A stretch of DNA of 64,000 nucleotides from Novosphingobium sp. (lineage in GTDB: Bacteria; Pseudomonadota; Alphaproteobacteria; Sphingomonadales; Sphingomonadaceae): NCBI GenBank assembly GCA_024236215.1, contig JACKKX010000002.1, positions 186,001 through 250,000 of the forward strand, read 5' to 3'. The position numbers and the translations under genes are program-made. Shown here in pieces: positions 57,649 to 64,000 of the stretch (position 1 is its first letter; every line of letters starts with the position of its first letter). Under the pieces are notes generated by a model. It was given only the letters and a program-made list of their open reading frames with translations, had not been told where the DNA came from and searched no databases.

Positions 57649-59100
57649 TTAGGGCTTCGAGGGGCGCGGTGCAAGCGTCACGAGTTTGCCCGGATTGAGC
57701 AGACCCGCCGGGTCAAGCGCAGCCTTGATCCGCCGCATCAGATCCAACGCGACGGGATCGCCAAGCCGCTCGAGCTCATCGCGCTTGAGCTGGCCGATGC
57801 CGTGCTCGGCCGAGATCGATCCGCTCCACTGGGTGACCAGATCGTGAACCCGCCTGCTGATGGCCTTGCCCTCACGCGATTCCCATTCGCCGCGCACCGC
57901 ATCGGTCGGGGCTACGACATGGAAATGCACGTTTCCATCCCCCAGATGCCCAAAGCAGAAAGTCTGGGTTCCAGGCCATTCGGCTTCGATTGCCGAGCTG
58001 GCGAATTCGATGAATTCAGGCATTTGCTCGGCCGGAACCGAGATATCGTGCTGTACAGCCGCGCCCTTTGCCCGCTGCGCCGCCGGGATCCCCTCGCGCA
58101 AGGCCCAGAAGGCTTCGGCCTGGGCTTCGGAAGCAGAGATGGCGGCATCGGTGAGCAGCGCTTTGGCAAATGCCTCGCTCAGCATGGTGGCGGCACGCTC
58201 TTGCAGGGTATCGGCGCCGCGGGCGTCGGCGACCAGCTCGATCAATGCATGCCATGGGTGGTCCTGCCGAAGCGGCGCACGCATTCCCGCCTGGTGCTGC
58301 AAGACCGCATCGAGGCTCGATTGCGGAAGGATTTCGAATCCCTCCAGCGCCTCGCCCATCGCGCGATTGCAGTGCTCCAGCAGCGCGCGAGCAGCCCGGA
58401 TCGAGGAAATGCCCGCCCAGATAACCACCCGTTCCGCGATTTGCGGGACCAGTTGCAGGGTCGCCGCCGTGACCACACCGAGGGTCCCTTCCGATCCAAT
58501 GAACAGTTGCTTGAGATCGAAGCCGCGGTTGTCCTTCTTGAGCGGAGTCAGCGCCGAATAGACCGAACCATCGGCCAGCACTGCCTCAAGTCCCAGCACC
58601 AGCGCGCGCATCGAGCCGTGCCGCAAGACCTGGGTGCCGCCCGCGTTTGTTGAGATCAGCCCGCCAACCGTTGCCGAGCCCTTGCCGCCAAGCGATAGCG
58701 GGAAGCGCAGCCCTTGGGCCGCAGCCACTTCGTGAAGCGATTGCAGCACCACCCCTGCCTCGCAGATGGCGGTACGGTTGTCAGTGTCGATCTTGCGGAT
58801 CGTCGTCATCCGGCGCAGCGACAGCAGCAGTGCGGAGCCATCGGCCGACGGCGTGGCGCCGCCCGACATGCCGCTGTTTCCCCCCTGGGGGACGACCGGT
58901 ACTCCATGGCTCGTGCAAAGCGCCAGTAGTGCGGCCAGCTCCTCGCACGTCGCTGGCGCGGCCATGGCCAGCGCCTTGCCCGTGAAACGGCCCCGCCAAT
59001 CGGTCAGCCATGGCGCTATCAGATCGGGATCGCGGGTGAACCCGCGCGGGCCGAGCAGTTCGTCAGCGTGGTTCAGAAAGGCTTCGCGATCGGGTGTCAT
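57649..59100 (-). CDS. FAD-linked D-2-hydroxyacid dehydrogenase (D-lactate / D-2-hydroxyglutarate type)
   Basis: 483 residues from the ATG at 59100. The VAO-type FAD domain has VPVVPQGGNSGMSGGA (about 70-85), FPLSLGGKGSATVGGLISTN and GSEGTLGVVTAATL. The C-terminal FAD-oxidase domain contributes FGHLGDGNVHFHV, with its metal-binding histidines, SAEHGIGQLKRDEL and MRRIKAALDPAGLLNPGKL. The family oxidises D-lactate, D-2-hydroxyglutarate or related acids and passes electrons on. Substrate undecided. Confidence 0.9.
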   Translation of the reverse strand: MTPDREAFLNHADELLGPRGFTRDPDLIAPWLTDWRGRFTGKALAMAAPATCEELAALLALCTSHGVPVVPQGGNSGMSGGATPSADGSALLLSLRRMTTIRKIDTDNRTAICEAGVVLQSLHEVAAAQGLRFPLSLGGKGSATVGGLISTNAGGTQVLRHGSMRALVLGLEAVLADGSVYSALTPLKKDNRGFDLKQLFIGSEGTLGVVTAATLQLVPQIAERVVIWAGISSIRAARALLEHCNRAMGEALEGFEILPQSSLDAVLQHQAGMRAPLRQDHPWHALIELVADARGADTLQERAATMLSEAFAKALLTDAAISASEAQAEAFWALREGIPAAQRAKGAAVQHDISVPAEQMPEFIEFASSAIEAEWPGTQTFCFGHLGDGNVHFHVVAPTDAVRGEWESREGKAISRRVHDLVTQWSGSISAEHGIGQLKRDELERLGDPVALDLMRRIKAALDPAGLLNPGKLVTLAPRPSKP

Positions 59101-59207
59101 GGCCGCCAATTATGGCACAGCGATGCAGTCAACTGCCAGTCCCGGCTTGTTTCCTGGCCAATGCGGGTTAAGCGACGGTTCAACACCGGCTGATAATGCG
59201 GAGTCCG

Positions 59208-59771
59208 ATGCACCCCGGCTTTTCCATTTTTGCGCCATTTCTGGTGTTGCTGCCCGCGCTTTCGGCGGCACCCGAGGTGCGTCAATCGACGGAGTCTACC
59301 CCGTCGGGACCGGTTTCGCGCCCGCCCACCGATGGGCGAGAGCCATGGACGACCATGGCAACGGTGTACCGCCCGCTTGATGCCGATCAGGTCCGGATCG
59401 AGCAGACGGTTACGATCCGGATCGGTCCCCGCCCGGCGCCGGTAACGCTGGCTCCGGCTTTTTTCGAATCGGAAATGGACAGTTCGGGACCTCGGCTGGT
59501 CGAGCGCAAGTTCGGCAACTGCGTGCCCGTTGCCGGGATCATGGGGGTACAGCCCGCACCGGGAAACCGTCTGCTGTTGATCATGCGCGATCAGCGGCTG
59601 CTGACCGCTTCGCTCAAGAAGGGCTGTAACAGCCGTGACTATTATTCCGGCTTTCTGATTGCCAGAAACCAGGACGGGCTGATCTGTACCGGGCGCGACA
59701 AACTACTGGCCCGCAGCGGCGCCAATTGCCAGGTCGATGGCTTCCGCCAATTGATCCAGGTCGGCAGCTGA
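59208..59771 (+). CDS. Exported protein of unknown function
   Basis: 187 residues from the ATG at 59208, chosen because GGAG lies five bases upstream; another ATG four codons earlier has no such site. Signal peptide MHPGFSIFAPFLVLLPALSA. The mature protein is beta-rich with VRIEQTVTIRIGPRPAP, RLVERKFGNCVPVAGIMGVQ and RLLLIMRDQRLLTASLKKGC and four cysteines (Cys in FGNC, KKGC, LIC and ANC), enough for two disulphides. No family is recognised. Probably periplasmic or surface-located. Confidence 0.72.
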   Translation: MHPGFSIFAPFLVLLPALSAAPEVRQSTESTPSGPVSRPPTDGREPWTTMATVYRPLDADQVRIEQTVTIRIGPRPAPVTLAPAFFESEMDSSGPRLVERKFGNCVPVAGIMGVQPAPGNRLLLIMRDQRLLTASLKKGCNSRDYYSGFLIARNQDGLICTGRDKLLARSGANCQVDGFRQLIQVGS

Positions 59772-59885
59772 GCAGAACTCTTGCGCATTTCTTGACTTGC
59801 GGGGGGCTTTGCGCCTAGGGCGCCGCGCTATTGGCGCAGGCAATCCACGGCCGTGCGTCGATCTGTTTCCGGAACAACACAGCTT

Positions 59886-61235
59886 ATGAAGTTCGCCGAT
59901 CTCGGCCTGTCAGACGAATTGCTCGGCGCGGTTACCGCGAAGGGATACGATACGCCCACGCCGATCCAGGCCCAGGCGATCCCAAGCGTGCTGATGATGA
60001 AGGATCTGATCGCGATCGCGCAGACCGGTACCGGCAAGACCGCGAGCTTCGTCCTCCCGATGATCGACATTCTCGCCCACGGCCGCCGCCGGGCGATGAT
60101 GCCGCGCAGCCTGATCCTTGAGCCAACTCGCGAACTCGCCGCCCAGGTGGCCGAAAACTTCGAGCAATACGGGGTCAACCACGATCTCAAGATGGCGCTG
60201 CTGATCGGCGGCGTGCAGATGGGCGATCAGGTCAAGGCGCTCAACGAGGGGGTTGACGTACTGATCGCCACCCCGGGCCGGCTGATGGACCTGTTCGAGC
60301 GCGGCAAGATCCTGCTGACCGGCTGCGATCTGCTGGTGATTGACGAGGCCGACCGGATGCTCGACATGGGCTTCATCCCCGATATCGAGACGATCTGCTC
60401 CAAGCTGCCCGCCAACCGCCAGACCCTGTTGTTCAGCGCGACCATGCCGCCGCCGATCAAGAAGCTGGCCGACAAGTTCCTGAGCAATCCCAAATATATC
60501 GAGGTTGCCCGGCCCGCTTCGACCAACACCAATATCGCCCAGCACAAAGTGCCGGTGGATAGCCGCAAGAAGCGCGAAGTGCTGCGCCACTTGCTGCGCA
60601 CTGACGATGTCAGCACCGCCATGATCTTCGCCAACCGCAAGACCACCGTGCGCGAGCTCAACAAGAGCTTGCGGAGCCACGGATTCGCCAGCGGTGAAAT
60701 CCACGGCGATATGGATCAGCCCGCGCGGCTGGCCGAATTGCAGCGCTTCAAGGACGGCCAGATCAACATTCTGGTCTGCTCCGACGTCGCTGCGCGCGGG
60801 CTGGACATCAAGGGCGTCAGCCACGTCTTCAACTTCGACACCCCCTGGCATCCGGACGACTATGTCCACCGCATTGGCCGCACGGGCCGCGCCGGGGCGA
60901 CGGGCCGAGCCTTCACGCTGGTCGGCAAGGAAGACGCAGAGGCGATCGAGAATGTCGAGAAGCTGACCGGCGGTAAGGTTCCAGTGTTCGAGGTCAAACT
61001 TGAAGCGGCGGCGGACCGGCCTCGGCGCGAATCCAGCGAAGCCGCCGAGAAGCGCGAGCAGGAGCCGCGCCGCAAGAGCGAAGCGAAGCCCGAGCGTGCG
61101 CCGCGAAAAACTCGCGCCGAGCAGACCGACGAGCAACCACGCCGCGCCGGTCGCCCGGTATCGAGGGAACCAGCAAGTGAACCGGGCGAATGGAACGGTC
61201 CCGTGCCCGGATTCCTTGGAATTTCAGCGCTCTGA
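59886..61235 (+). CDS. DEAD-box RNA helicase
   Basis: 449 residues from the ATG at 59886 (MKFADLGLSDELLGAVTAKG). The Q motif TPTPIQAQAIP, motif I AQTGTGKT, Ia PTRELAAQ, II (VIDEADRML), III SATMP, IV/V (IFANRKTT, DVAARGLDI) and VI HRIGRTGRAG are all present. The C-terminal 90 residues are basic and low-complexity (RKSEAKPERAPRKTRAEQ), as in RhlE-type helicases. It unwinds RNA, probably in ribosome assembly or mRNA decay. It converges on the peptide gene, with two bases between the stops. Confidence 0.94.
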   Translation: MKFADLGLSDELLGAVTAKGYDTPTPIQAQAIPSVLMMKDLIAIAQTGTGKTASFVLPMIDILAHGRRRAMMPRSLILEPTRELAAQVAENFEQYGVNHDLKMALLIGGVQMGDQVKALNEGVDVLIATPGRLMDLFERGKILLTGCDLLVIDEADRMLDMGFIPDIETICSKLPANRQTLLFSATMPPPIKKLADKFLSNPKYIEVARPASTNTNIAQHKVPVDSRKKREVLRHLLRTDDVSTAMIFANRKTTVRELNKSLRSHGFASGEIHGDMDQPARLAELQRFKDGQINILVCSDVAARGLDIKGVSHVFNFDTPWHPDDYVHRIGRTGRAGATGRAFTLVGKEDAEAIENVEKLTGGKVPVFEVKLEAAADRPRRESSEAAEKREQEPRRKSEAKPERAPRKTRAEQTDEQPRRAGRPVSREPASEPGEWNGPVPGFLGISAL

Positions 61236-61237
61236 AG

Positions 61238-61549
61238 CTAGCGCACGTCGACCATCGGCGCGTGGCAATCCATTACATCGCAGCTATCGCAAATATCCTG
61301 CGGCGCATCGCATTCGATGCACCATTGCTCGTGGCAACTGGGCGGCTCGCCGGGATCGGGCGGGGGCTGCGTCCCTGAGATGTCGACCGTGCCGCCTGCG
61401 ATCTGATCGCCGCGCACGGCAGCCCGCGCGGCCGCGCGTTCGGCAATCTGCTGGCGCAAGCCAGCGGGAAGTCCGCCGGTCAGCCTGTACTTGGCTTCGA
61501 TCTGCCGGGCCAATTCGTCCGCGATGCGCTGCTTGAGGCTGTCAGACAT
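61238..61549 (-). CDS. Six-cysteine peptide, candidate RiPP precursor
   Basis: 103 residues. The ATG at 61549 has AAGGAG 7 bases upstream, inside the radical SAM gene, and its first 8 bases overlap that gene's end (stop at 61542). Residues 1-50 are helical and charged (DSLKQRIADELARQIEAKY), a plausible leader. A linker with QPPPDPGEPP follows, then a Cys-rich core with Cys72, 77, 80, 87, 90 and 95. Three Cys-X3-Asp spacings (77/81, 87/91, 90/94) are present, as in PapA/freyrasin-type ranthipeptides, where a radical SAM enzyme joins Cys to Asp. Alternatives are a metal-binding (zinc-ribbon-like) protein or a small scaffold. The peptide is not secreted by a visible signal. Confidence 0.7.
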   Translation of the reverse strand: MSDSLKQRIADELARQIEAKYRLTGGLPAGLRQQIAERAAARAAVRGDQIAGGTVDISGTQPPPDPGEPPSCHEQWCIECDAPQDICDSCDVMDCHAPMVDVR

Positions 61550-62699
61550 GGACAAGCTCCTTGGTTGAACGTTGCATTTCCTCGAATTTCTCGGTCTGCC
61601 ATTTGACCGCTAGCATGATCTGCCGGATCCTTCCCGGGGTTGCGGGCGGGCGGACCGGATCGCCGGTGACAAAGTGATTGAGCGCGAAGCAACTGCCGCC
61701 GCAGCTTCCCGAGACAAGGCAATCGCGGCAAAACTGGGAACCGGAAAGTGCGCTTTCGCGCGGAGTGAAAGCCGCGCAGACACGCTTCGCTCCGCAGCGA
61801 TTGGCAGCGATGAAGCGTGAACGTTGCAACGGATCGAGACCTTCGAAGACCGAACCGATCCTCACCTCTGGCGAACGATCAAAATAGCCCGGATAGCGCT
61901 GGCACGGGTAGATCGCACCGTTGTGATCGATGAAGGCGAAATGGACCGCCGCACCGCAACCGAACTCACACCCGATGCGCCCGGCTTCCTCTTCGATCGC
62001 GGCCTGGTCGGCGGCGGCCATGCGCAGCCGCGGCTGTGCACCCGCTTGCTGCTCGATCAGGCAGCGTGCGGTGACCCGGCGCCAGGCCCGTGCAAATGCC
62101 TCAAGCGCGGCTTCGCTCCATTCTTCCTCGGACACTGGGGCAACCGCGATCCGCATCACCCCGGAATCGAGCAGATAGCCGATGCCATCGGGCAGTGCGT
62201 CAACCGTTTCAGGGGTGACGGTCATCCTTACCCCGAAGCCGGGCGTCTGCTTCAGCAGCGGCAGGTTGTGCTCGATCCGTTCAAACGAACCGCGTCCGTT
62301 GCGATAGCGCCGATAGCGATCGTGCGCGCGGCCTTCCCCATCGAGGCTGAGCTGGACGTGTATTCGGTGGCGCTGAACCAGTTCAAGCGCCCTGGCATCG
62401 AACAGGGTGCCGTTGGTCGTGGTCGAAAAGCGCAGCGCCAGGCGCGGATGATGCGCGGCGAAACCACAGCTCAGGGCCGTGGCCAGGCGGTCCATGCTTT
62501 CGGCGGCAAGGAACGGTTCGCCGCCGAAGAAGTTGACGCCGAAACGCGGGGCGGCAGGATCAGCGTTGGCAAGGCAGAAGGCCAGCGTTGCCTCGATCGT
62601 CGCCGGGTCCATCGCCCTGGGAGCCTTGTGCGCAAAGTAGCAATAGCTGCATGCCAGGTTGCAGGCATCGGTTAGCTGGATCGATACCGCGCGCAGCAT
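61542..62699 (-). CDS. Radical SAM/SPASM peptide-modifying enzyme
   Basis: 385 residues from the ATG at 62699, with GGAG 7 bases upstream. The radical SAM cluster motif is CNLACSYCY (CX3CX2C). FFGGEPFLA and STTTNGTLF are typical of peptide maturases. The SPASM domain is complete: a CX12GX4C segment (from CGAAVHF to NGAIYPC) and a CX2CX5CX3C segment (CRDC, LVSGS, CGGSC), for auxiliary 4Fe-4S clusters. Such enzymes install thioether or C-C links in ribosomal peptides. The overlapping Cys-rich gene is the likely substrate. No protease or transporter gene is adjacent. Confidence 0.9.
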   Translation of the reverse strand: MLRAVSIQLTDACNLACSYCYFAHKAPRAMDPATIEATLAFCLANADPAAPRFGVNFFGGEPFLAAESMDRLATALSCGFAAHHPRLALRFSTTTNGTLFDARALELVQRHRIHVQLSLDGEGRAHDRYRRYRNGRGSFERIEHNLPLLKQTPGFGVRMTVTPETVDALPDGIGYLLDSGVMRIAVAPVSEEEWSEAALEAFARAWRRVTARCLIEQQAGAQPRLRMAAADQAAIEEEAGRIGCEFGCGAAVHFAFIDHNGAIYPCQRYPGYFDRSPEVRIGSVFEGLDPLQRSRFIAANRCGAKRVCAAFTPRESALSGSQFCRDCLVSGSCGGSCFALNHFVTGDPVRPPATPGRIRQIMLAVKWQTEKFEEMQRSTKELVHV

Positions 62700-62783
62700 G
62701 GCAGTCTCCACAGACTAGAGGCGCAGCATGCCGGCAATCGTGGCGGGTCTGCATTGACCCCTGTCAAAGCCCTGCAATTGGGC

Positions 62784-64000
62784 TCAGGCCAGCTTCACGA
62801 AGCTATCGATCACCCGCTTCGCTCCGGCCGTCTCAAATTCGATCTCCAGCTTGTTGCCTTCCTGCGCGGTGACGGTGCCGTAGCCGAACTTTTCGTGAAA
62901 CACGCGCGCACCGGGCGCAACATCGCCGCGCGGCTTGGCAGCGAAGCTGGCGGCGGAGCGGGTGGCTTCGGGCAGGCGGCGGGGTGGGGCATCGTATTGC
63001 CGCGCGGCGGCGCGTTGCCAGCCGGGGCCACGGGTGGCGCCGCGCGCGGCATTGTCGCGCGCGACATGGGCGAAGGGATCGCCAGCTTCCGACCACTGGG
63101 CCTTCCACAGCGAGGCGCCGCCGGAAAGGGTACTTTCCTGTTCGATATGGGCGGGAGGCAATTCGGCGATGAAGCGGCTGGGGATCGAACTGGTCCACTG
63201 GCCGTAGATCCGCCGGTTGGCGGCGTGCAGGATGGTACAGCGCCGCCGCGCGCGGGTGATCGCGACATAGGCGAGGCGCCGCTCTTCCTCAAGGCTGGCA
63301 AGCCCGCCTTCATCCATCGCCCGCTGGCTGGGGAACACGCCTTCCTCCCATCCGACCAGGAACACGTGGTCGAATTCCAGCCCCTTGGCCGCATGGATGG
63401 TCATTATGGTGAGTTTTTCCGCCGCCTCGTTGGCATCGTTGTCCATCACCAGGCTGACGTGTTCGAGGAAATCGCCGAGCGTCTCGTAGTCTTCCATCGC
63501 TCGGGCCAGCTCGGCCAGGTTTTCCAGCCGTCCGGCGCTCTCGGCGCTTTTTTCGGCCTGGAGTGCGGCGGTGTAGCCGCTTTCGTCAAGCAGAGTGCGA
63601 GCCAGCTCGGCCGGGCTAGCGGTCCTGGCGAGGTCACGCCAGCGCGCGACATCGCGCATGAAGGCCAGCAGCGTGCCGCGCGCCCGCGCGGGAAGCTCGT
63701 CGCTATCGGTGATCTCGATCGCCGCCAGACTGAGCGGCACGCCGCGTGCGCGGGCATGGCGGTGGAGCTTTTCCAGTGTCTTGTCGCCCAGGCCGCGCTT
63801 TGGGGTATTGTAGATCCGTTCAAAGGCCAGATCGTCGCTCGGCTGAGCGATCAGTCGCAGATAGGCCAGCGCATCGCGGATCTCGGCGCGCTCGTAAAAG
63901 CGGAAGCCGCCGACGATACGATAGGGCAGGCCGGTGGCGATGAACCGGTCCTCAAACTCGCGGGTCTGGAACTGGGCGCGCACCAGGATCGCGACCGCGG
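62784..64000 (-). CDS. uvrD: DNA helicase UvrD/PcrA, C-terminal part
   Basis: The frame is open to the window edge (405 codons shown), so the start and Walker A motif are outside. Visible SF1A motifs are VAILVRAQFQTREFE (motif IV), LTIMTIHAAKGLEFDHVFLV with GWEEGVFPSQRA (motif V), and EEERRLAYVAITRARRRC (motif VI). The C-terminal Tudor-like domain has VFHEKFGYGTVTAQEGNKLE. It acts in nucleotide excision and mismatch repair. The radical SAM/SPASM gene starts 84 bases downstream on the same strand. Confidence 0.93.
   Translation of the reverse strand, partial: AVAILVRAQFQTREFEDRFIATGLPYRIVGGFRFYERAEIRDALAYLRLIAQPSDDLAFERIYNTPKRGLGDKTLEKLHRHARARGVPLSLAAIEITDSDELPARARGTLLAFMRDVARWRDLARTASPAELARTLLDESGYTAALQAEKSAESAGRLENLAELARAMEDYETLGDFLEHVSLVMDNDANEAAEKLTIMTIHAAKGLEFDHVFLVGWEEGVFPSQRAMDEGGLASLEEERRLAYVAITRARRRCTILHAANRRIYGQWTSSIPSRFIAELPPAHIEQESTLSGGASLWKAQWSEAGDPFAHVARDNAARGATRGPGWQRAAARQYDAPPRRLPEATRSAASFAAKPRGDVAPGARVFHEKFGYGTVTAQEGNKLEIEFETAGAKRVIDSFVKLA

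What the first reader, a model, noticed from the sequence alone, without database searches (positions are those of the whole stretch)
61238..62699. Two-gene radical SAM/SPASM plus six-Cys peptide cassette: candidate undescribed ranthipeptide-like system
A complete SPASM radical SAM enzyme overlaps, by 8 bases, a 103-residue protein that ends in six cysteines within residues 72-95. Three Cys-X3-Asp spacings (77/81, 87/91, 90/94) match the Cys-to-Asp crosslink spacing known for PapA/freyrasin, a Firmicute ranthipeptide. The peptide start has a strong AAGGAG site inside the enzyme gene. Established: SPASM enzymes modify peptides encoded next to them. Inferred: the peptide is the substrate and thioethers form. 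Peptide after enzyme, with no exporter or protease, is unusual for RiPP loci and suggests an internal function or an incomplete cassette.
Basis: partly seen in the sequence, partly recalled or inferred. Interest (0 to 1): 0.85.

Follow-up and report, generated by a model that had tools for sequence, protein, structure and literature searches.

The report
Divergent freyrasin-type crosslinked peptide cassette
Two overlapping genes in a bacterium (likely a sphingomonad) encode a PapB-like radical SAM enzyme and a six-cysteine peptide that the enzyme is predicted to tie into sulfur-bridged loops; it is an irregularly spaced cousin of the known freyrasin peptides, so it would be a natural test of how flexible this crosslinking chemistry is.

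Summary
In detail: a SPASM-type radical SAM gene (61542-62699/62711, minus strand) overlaps by 8 bases a 103-residue protein with six Cys (72, 77, 80, 87, 90, 95). The reading is largely right, but the kind is known. The enzyme's best curated model is PapB (NF047865, 285 bits, cut-off 340); it groups (100/98) with enzymes followed, on the same strand, by freyrasin-family peptides in Trujillonella, Planobispora and a Methylocystis plasmid (3 of 3 readable relatives over 40% identity besides a near copy). The window peptide shares their core, CIxCDx(2-3)DxCxxCDxxD (hhalign E 4.5e-6; 0 of 9000 shuffles reach its HMM score), but modestly, and its leader is only weakly similar. Peptide after enzyme with no exporter beside it is normal in this clade. 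What differs: in nine of ten relatives every Cys is in CX3D, in the window three of six; the others are CX4D, CX5D and one without partner. Both NCBI models miss the pair. The enzyme lacks the N-terminal part that precedes PapB's core. The cassette is rare (2 of 195 genomes of its genus) and fills a variable gap between uvrD and a DEAD-box gene. Thioethers are predicted, not shown. New variant of a known kind; product's function unknown.

The parts
61542..62711 (-). PapB-like radical SAM/SPASM enzyme (389 aa from GTG 62711; 385 aa from ATG 62699, the likelier start)
   Evidence: NF047865 rSAM_PapB 285.3 bits over model 2-330 of 330, cut-off 340; tree; nearest solved fold CteB 5why/5wgg by sequence and by model
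61238..61549 (-). freyrasin-like precursor peptide, 103 aa; leader about 1-70, six-Cys core 71-103
   Evidence: NF037957 only 11 bits, cut-off 30
61557..61562 (-). AAGGAG ribosome-binding site of the peptide gene, inside the enzyme gene
   Evidence: sequence read
61241..61339 (-). Cys/Asp core of the peptide (residues 71-103): predicted links C77-D81, C80-D85, C87-D91, C90-D94, C95-D101; C72 without a family partner
   Evidence: alignment with 10 relatives; the links themselves are inferred
59853..61235 (+). DEAD-box helicase, left flank of the cassette, convergent; not part of it
   Evidence: Pfam DEAD/Helicase_C; convergent with uvrD in relatives lacking the cassette
62784..64000 (-). uvrD/pcrA-type helicase (runs off the window), right flank; not part of the cassette
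   Evidence: Pfam UvrD_C

Best explanation
The cassette encodes a PapB-like radical SAM/SPASM enzyme and, overlapping it, a freyrasin-like precursor peptide whose cysteines the enzyme is predicted to join to nearby aspartates by thioether bonds, giving a ranthipeptide with unequal loops. Shown: the gene pair and overlap, a core shared with freyrasin-family peptides, a tree position beside enzymes that have such peptides as the next gene, the Fe-S cysteines. Inferred from published work on Paenibacillus PapB: the enzyme binds the peptide leader, makes a 5'-deoxyadenosyl radical at the CX3CX2C cluster, takes H from the Asp carbon next to the carboxylate, and joins it to a Cys thiol held on an auxiliary cluster, losing 2 Da per link. 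Expected links: C77-D81, C87-D91, C90-D94 (CX3D), and probably C80-D85 (CX4D) and C95-D101 (CX5D); C72 has lost its Asp and may stay free. No RRE-like domain was found before the core, so the leader would be bound by the rest of the enzyme. With no exporter or protease beside it, the modified peptide would stay in the cell or be processed by unlinked functions; what it does is unknown (metal or redox binding is my guess).
For: The PapB model is the best of 74 NCBIfam matches by 160 bits. Window, P0003 and P0004 form a clade (100/98); next to them stand 24 rows (100/97) that hold all three enzymes shown to have a freyrasin peptide as next gene; the two together are 100/98 (midpoint root; peptides). 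The PapB cut-off is passed on both sides of the window clade: P0005 368, P0026 357, P0029 343. A peptide HMM from 10 relatives without the window gives the window 20.5 bits; 0 of 3000 full, 0 of 3000 tail and 0 of 3000 Cys-fixed tail shuffles reach it; hhalign E 4.5e-6, residues 68-95. Of 8842 stop-to-stop frames in 75 loci, the three relatives' peptides score 137-156 bits and the window's own copies come next. C17/C21/C24, C252, C270, C328/C331/C337/C341 keep the spacing of 9 of 10 cluster Cys named for PapB (PMC10470005 passages). PapB completes CXnD for n=1-5 in vitro (PMC9413430 passages).
Against: Both NCBI cut-offs are missed (285 of 340; 11 of 30). With HMMER's bias correction the window peptide scores only 15.1 bits (E 0.011) among 8842 frames, and the best unrelated frame 13.1; the best Cys-fixed shuffle scored 19.6 against 20.5: much of the signal is the Cys frame. 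The leader alone scores -0.8 bits; pairwise, 34 of 2000 shuffles do as well. A review reports that PapB did not accept CX4D (PMC8172795 passages). PapB's tenth cluster Cys (C440) has no counterpart; the invariant C312 may replace it. The near copy L001 is 99.5% identical (6384 of 6414 bases), so there is no useful selection test; the enzyme shows 3 synonymous and 4 non-synonymous codon changes, its neighbours 5/2, 4/1 and 5/3.
Confidence: 0.75

Rival explanations
1. The peptide is a small metal-binding protein (CxxC...CxxC knuckle) whose Cys ligate zinc or iron; the enzyme acts on something else or on one residue only.
For: CxxC-x5/6-CxxC is present in the window peptide and in all 10 relatives.
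Against: Pfam finds no domain in the peptide at E<=1. In nine of 10 relatives every Cys has an Asp at +4, which metal binding does not need and PapB chemistry does. The peptide follows a PapB-family enzyme in the three relatives read.
Confidence: 0.1
2. The window cassette is a decaying freyrasin-type cassette: the substrate has lost half of its crosslink spacing and the pair is on its way out.
For: Three of six Cys are no longer in CX3D; rare in the genus (2 of 195); 3 synonymous and 4 non-synonymous changes to L001 in the enzyme; P0002 carries the leader with an unrelated tail without the Cys core.
Against: Both reading frames are intact in G000 and L001; the enzyme is full length at 94% (P0003) and 52% (P0004) identity with the cluster Cys kept; all six Cys and five Asp remain at spacings that PapB completes in vitro, except for C72; a relative (P0124) also has CX4D at its last ring.
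Confidence: 0.15
3. The enzyme is a radical SAM maturase of another type (sactipeptide, cyclophane or sulfatase maturase), and the neighbouring peptide is its substrate with another link chemistry.
For: Many rSAM/SPASM models match weakly; sequence and fold searches also find anSME and ChlB.
Against: The next-best model has 124 bits against 285 for PapB; the nearest solved fold is CteB, a ranthipeptide maturase (PMC11002830 passages).
Confidence: 0.05

Closest known systems
PapA/PapB, freyrasin of Paenibacillus polymyxa (ranthipeptide)
   Same: rSAM/SPASM maturase plus Cys/Asp-rich precursor; CX3D motifs partly nested; 9 of 10 cluster Cys at the same spacing
   Different: Only 3 of 6 CX3D; much less protein before the rSAM core (PapB's first cluster Cys is C119, here C17 or C13); tenth cluster Cys missing. 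PapA and PapB themselves were not aligned: their sequences were not at hand.
Enzyme-first freyrasin-family pairs: Trujillonella endophytica (L002), Planobispora longispora (L003), Methylocystis iwaonis plasmid pSS37A-Re-2 (L045)
   Same: 42-44% enzyme identity, same gene order and strand, same core CIxCDxxDxCxxCDxxD, no exporter among the neighbouring genes looked at
   Different: They pass both NCBI cut-offs (408-423 and 71-127 bits); nearly all their Cys are in CX3D; the window has insertions, a lost Asp and an unlike leader
SCIFF/thermocellin, CteA/CteB (ranthipeptide)
   Same: Best solved fold for the enzyme (5why, E 2e-18)
   Different: TIGR03974 scores 97 bits, cut-off 425; links Cys to Thr (PMC11002830 passages); CteB carries about 90 residues before the matched core

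Membership tests
PapB family (NCBIfam NF047865, equivalog) | score at or above 340 bits | tested here: not met
   285.3 bits over the whole model; P0003 288.9, P0004 330
PapB family (NCBIfam NF047865, equivalog) | phylogenetic position among members | tested here: met
   tree (midpoint root); rows over the cut-off in the neighbouring 24 rows (P0005, L002, L003, L045) and outside (P0026, P0029); P0027, P0028, P0030 outside are under it
Freyrasin family peptide (NCBIfam NF037957) | score at or above 30 bits | tested here: not met
   11 bits, E 0.31, residues 73-94 only
Freyrasin family peptide (NCBIfam NF037957) | Cys in CX3D motifs | tested here: not met
   three of six; the others CX4D, CX5D and none
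Freyrasin family peptide (NCBIfam NF037957) | core homologous to family members | tested here: met
   hhalign E 4.5e-6; 0 of 9000 shuffles; but 15.1 bits against 13.1 for the best unrelated of 8842 frames
Freyrasin family peptide (NCBIfam NF037957) | leader like LPxxDxILKxLQ..G...LSP of the 10 relatives | tested here: inconclusive
   HMM -0.8 bits; pairwise 34 of 2000 shuffles as good
Ranthipeptide | Cys thioether to a non-alpha carbon, made by an rSAM enzyme | not testable with these tools
   needs mass spectrometry and NMR
Ranthipeptide | three Fe-S clusters as in PapB: CX3CX2C plus SPASM Cys | tested here: inconclusive
   9 of 10 PapB ligand positions by spacing; C440 counterpart absent, C312 invariant in 29 of 29 rows of A1
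Ranthipeptide | RRE domain for leader binding (usual, not strictly defining) | tested here: not met
   Pfam finds none in the enzyme at E<=1; the genome's only PqqD-type match is on another contig. The match to CteB starts at its residue 92

The most novel reading that the evidence does not exclude
A separate branch of ranthipeptide biosynthesis: an RRE-free PapB-type enzyme with an unlike leader that naturally makes Cys-Asp rings of mixed size (CX3D, CX4D, CX5D) on an intracellular, never-exported peptide, moved between bacteria as a two-gene unit dropped into a variable chromosomal gap.
Probability: 0.35. Interest if true: 0.62.

Novelty: new variant of a known kind. Interest (0 to 1): 0.45.

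Why it matters
PapB has been used as a tool to tie designed peptides (PMC8566587 and PMC9413430, passages), and the literature disagrees on whether it accepts spacings other than CX3D (PMC8172795 passages: CX4D not accepted; PMC9413430 passages: n=1-5 go to completion in vitro). A natural substrate that carries CX4D and CX5D next to its own PapB-like enzyme could show whether nature uses such rings. The pair is also a minimal, 1.5-kb, seemingly RRE-free maturase-substrate unit, and both NCBI models miss it, so more such pairs may be unannotated.

Tried and rejected
Rejected: 'broken or incomplete cassette because no exporter follows' (none seen beside the three relatives: 13 annotated features in L045, 4 flanking ORFs of L003 and 3 of L002 by Pfam, one of the latter without any hit; genes further off not looked at). 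Rejected: 'three CX3D prove the link to PapA' (4-10% by chance). Viral contigs: 27 loci, best-segment identity at most 37%. Freyrasin-like partner beside more distant rSAM genes: none in 69 of the 75 loci scanned, the other six being L001/L044 (one record), L043 (window), L002, L003, L045. No second copy of the peptide in the own genome (next match E 0.07, with a stop inside). No promoter-like site, one terminator-like site against 1.6 expected, no Rfam match (59000-64000). GC of the cassette 63.9% against 65.2% (sd 2.5) for window chunks: uninformative. G349, the only other genome of the family search at E<=1e-25: 33% identity, 465-residue frame, no freyrasin-like frame in the fetched 3.9 kb. 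Plasmid hits H2-H5 are 28-36% identical; H2 and H5 were fetched and scanned without a partner, H3 and H4 not fetched. The DNA beside P0003 and P0004, the closest enzymes, and P0031 (222-residue fragment, 54% over half of the query) could not be read (metagenome scans are capped at 0). P0133 (86 aa, nr) was dropped from the peptide counts: it is P0124 cut off before the Cys core. P0126 is 99% identical to P0123, so the 10 relatives are 9 clearly distinct ones.

Full report
What is there. On the minus strand of the window, a radical SAM gene (61542-62711 from GTG; 62699 from the likelier ATG) overlaps by 8 bases a 103-codon gene (61238-61549) with AAGGAG seven bases before its ATG. Enzyme residue numbers below count from the GTG; subtract 4 for the ATG start. 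The peptide has Cys 72, 77, 80, 87, 90, 95 and Asp 81, 85, 88, 91, 94, 101 in its tail; CX3D at 77/81, 87/91, 90/94, CX4D at 80/85, CX5D at 95/101; C72 has only Glu at +2 (E74) and +7 (E79).

The enzyme. Pfam: Radical_SAM 52.9 bits; SPASM model below cut-off. NCBIfam: 74 models match at E<=1, the best by far NF047865 (PapB family ranthipeptide maturase), 285.3 bits over the whole model, cut-off 340; the second has 124 bits. A search of 5.8 billion proteins gave P0003 (94% identity), P0004 (52%), P0005-P0025 (40-45%), then P0026-P0030 (32-36%), and a 222-residue fragment P0031 (54% over half the query) (1001 proteins at E<=0.001 among 7999 candidates scored, 120 listed). Alignment A1 (29 rows) shows invariant C17, C24, C252, C270, C312, C328, C331, C337, C341 and nearly invariant C21. 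PapB of P. polymyxa uses C119/C123/C126, C352/C370/C421 and C408/C411/C417/C440 (passages of PMC10470005): nine of these ten have counterparts at the same spacing; C440 has none, and C312, invariant in all 29 rows, may serve instead (inference). PapB's first cluster Cys is at 119, the window's at 17: the N-terminal part, where CteB has about 90 residues before the matched core, is absent here; rows of A1 have at most about 45 residues before the core. That this part is an RRE in PapB is what PMC9413430 takes as expected (passage); I did not test PapB itself. The AlphaFold model (pLDDT 75.5, weak at 232-253 and 308-340) matches CteB best (5why, E 2e-18). ChlB, solved with the leader of its precursor (title of PDB entry 9gm3 only), has 375 residues and its core at residue 3, so leader binding without an N-terminal RRE may have a precedent.

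The partner is conserved near, not far. In Trujillonella endophytica (L002) and Planobispora longispora (L003) the gene after the enzyme, 77 and 71 bases on, and in Methylocystis iwaonis plasmid pSS37A-Re-2 (L045) the gene 4 bases on, encodes a Cys/Asp peptide; these score 126.5, 87.9 and 70.8 bits with NF037957 (cut-off 30) and their enzymes 423, 408 and 412 with NF047865. These are all three relatives over 40% identity whose DNA could be read, apart from L001, which is nearly the window itself (6384 of 6414 bases) and has the identical peptide. A scan of 8842 stop-to-stop frames in 75 loci with a peptide HMM made without the window found these three (137-156 bits), then the window's own copies (L043 15.1 bits, L001/L044 14.2), then chance-level frames from 13.1 down; the other 69 loci, with rSAM genes under 40% identity, showed no such partner. 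P0014 and peptide P0130 probably also pair: both lie on a 2128-base contig of the same source (inference).

The peptide family. A profile search returned 10 proteins at E<=0.01 among 569 candidates, the window's own included. With P0123 (Methylocystis) and P0124 (Planobispora), and without the window and the truncated P0133, 10 relatives remain. All share C-x3-D-x-C-I-x-C-D-x2-D-x-C-x2-C-D-x2-D-x-C. All Cys are in CX3D in nine of 10; P0124 has 5 CX3D among 7 Cys, its last ring being CX4D. The window keeps C72, C77, I78, C80, D81, D85, C87, C90, D91, D94, D101 (invariant), with one residue inserted before D85, the Asp after C72 lost, and changes of length around C95. An HMM of the 10 relatives gives the window 20.5 bits without bias correction; 0 of 3000 full shuffles (max 10.4), 0 of 3000 tail shuffles (max 16.7), 0 of 3000 Cys-fixed tail shuffles (max 19.6) reach it. 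hhalign of the 10 against the window: probability 86.6, E 4.5e-6 for this one comparison, residues 68-95. So the core is related, but by a modest margin. The leader is different: -0.8 bits, and a pairwise test where 34 of 2000 shuffles do as well, with one ungapped stretch of 25 residues against Planobispora that shares D, Y, GL and L.

Phylogeny. In a 40-row tree (midpoint root, long branches among the outer rows) window, P0003 and P0004 form a clade (100/98) next to 24 rows (100/97) that include L002, L003 and L045; the two together have 100/98, with P0026-P0030 outside. P0026 and P0029, outside, and P0005, among the 24, exceed the PapB cut-off; P0004 (330), P0003 (289), P0027, P0028 and P0030 do not. 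So the window is a diverged lineage among PapB-family enzymes in the tree, but not a member by the curated score. I therefore file it as a variant, not a member.

Place and spread. Enzyme matches: 2 of 195 genomes of the genus at E<=1e-40 (the window's own and G148, whose match has the same coordinates as L001's); 2 of 298 of the family at 1e-25, the second a 33% identical rSAM without such a peptide; 1 of 346 of the order at 1e-40; 1 of 385 of the class at 1e-35; 1 of 398 of the phylum at 1e-40, in these three always the window's own; the sets overlap. A pattern-limited scan of genomes of 84,980 species gave 42 loci, three of them at 42% identity or more. The organism is likely a sphingomonad: the best hit among plasmid records for 7.9 kb of the window is Sphingomonas parapaucimobilis, 72% over 39% of the query. 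Of 18 other genomes of the genus drawn, uvrD was located in 17. In none of these 17 did the enzyme appear in the fetched locus (one contig, G181, ends there). The convergent DEAD-box gene was within the locus in 9 and, after fetching more of four others, in two more, G137 and G013; in G189 and G176 it was not within 8.6 kb; four were not extended. The gap is about 64 and 39 bases in G118 and G021, and up to 1.8 kb of other DNA elsewhere. So the cassette fills a variable gap; horizontal gain is the simplest reading, not proved.

Mechanism. Applied to the window (inference): three CX3D links are the safest, CX4D and CX5D likely, C72 uncertain. Purpose unknown; retention in the cell is suggested only by the absence of an exporter among the neighbouring genes looked at.

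In print. The listings of searches for freyrasin/PapB/ranthipeptide with Alphaproteobacteria, Methylocystis, Sphingomonas and related terms (up to 20 rows each) showed no paper on such a pair from an alphaproteobacterium; the library holds open-licence papers only, and the two primary freyrasin papers asked for are not in it.

The ribosome-binding site was moved by one base, the frame scan was added with its result against a strong peptide match, and the flank counts were made complete.

Noticed in passing
G000 contig C1 around 1148566 (locus L077): The genome's only PqqD-type RRE (69.8 bits) sits beside ORFs that by eye look like a lasso-peptide set (HprK-like kinase, B2-like peptidase); unrelated to the cassette.
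   Followed up: partly
L045 5983-10581 (Methylocystis iwaonis plasmid): The freyrasin-type pair lies between a relaxase gene (LPD7/MobA) and a three-component ABC (DUF3732) gene set, so it is carried on a plasmid.
   Followed up: no
P0002 (86 aa, 912-base contig): Protein with the window peptide's leader (residues 1-38, two changes) but an unrelated tail without the Cys core; core swap, decay or a chimeric contig.
   Followed up: no
P0133 (Planobispora longispora, nr): A public record of the Planobispora peptide is cut off before the Cys core, perhaps a sequencing or annotation error.
   Followed up: no
window 61235-62784 and loci L108, L110, L112, L113: The gap between uvrD and the convergent DEAD-box gene varies from about 40 bases to 1.8 kb among relatives, with other ORFs in it: a small variable site.
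   Followed up: partly
enzyme residue C312 (A1): An extra Cys, invariant in 29 of 29 aligned enzymes, while PapB's last auxiliary-cluster Cys has no counterpart: possibly a swapped cluster ligand.
   Followed up: no
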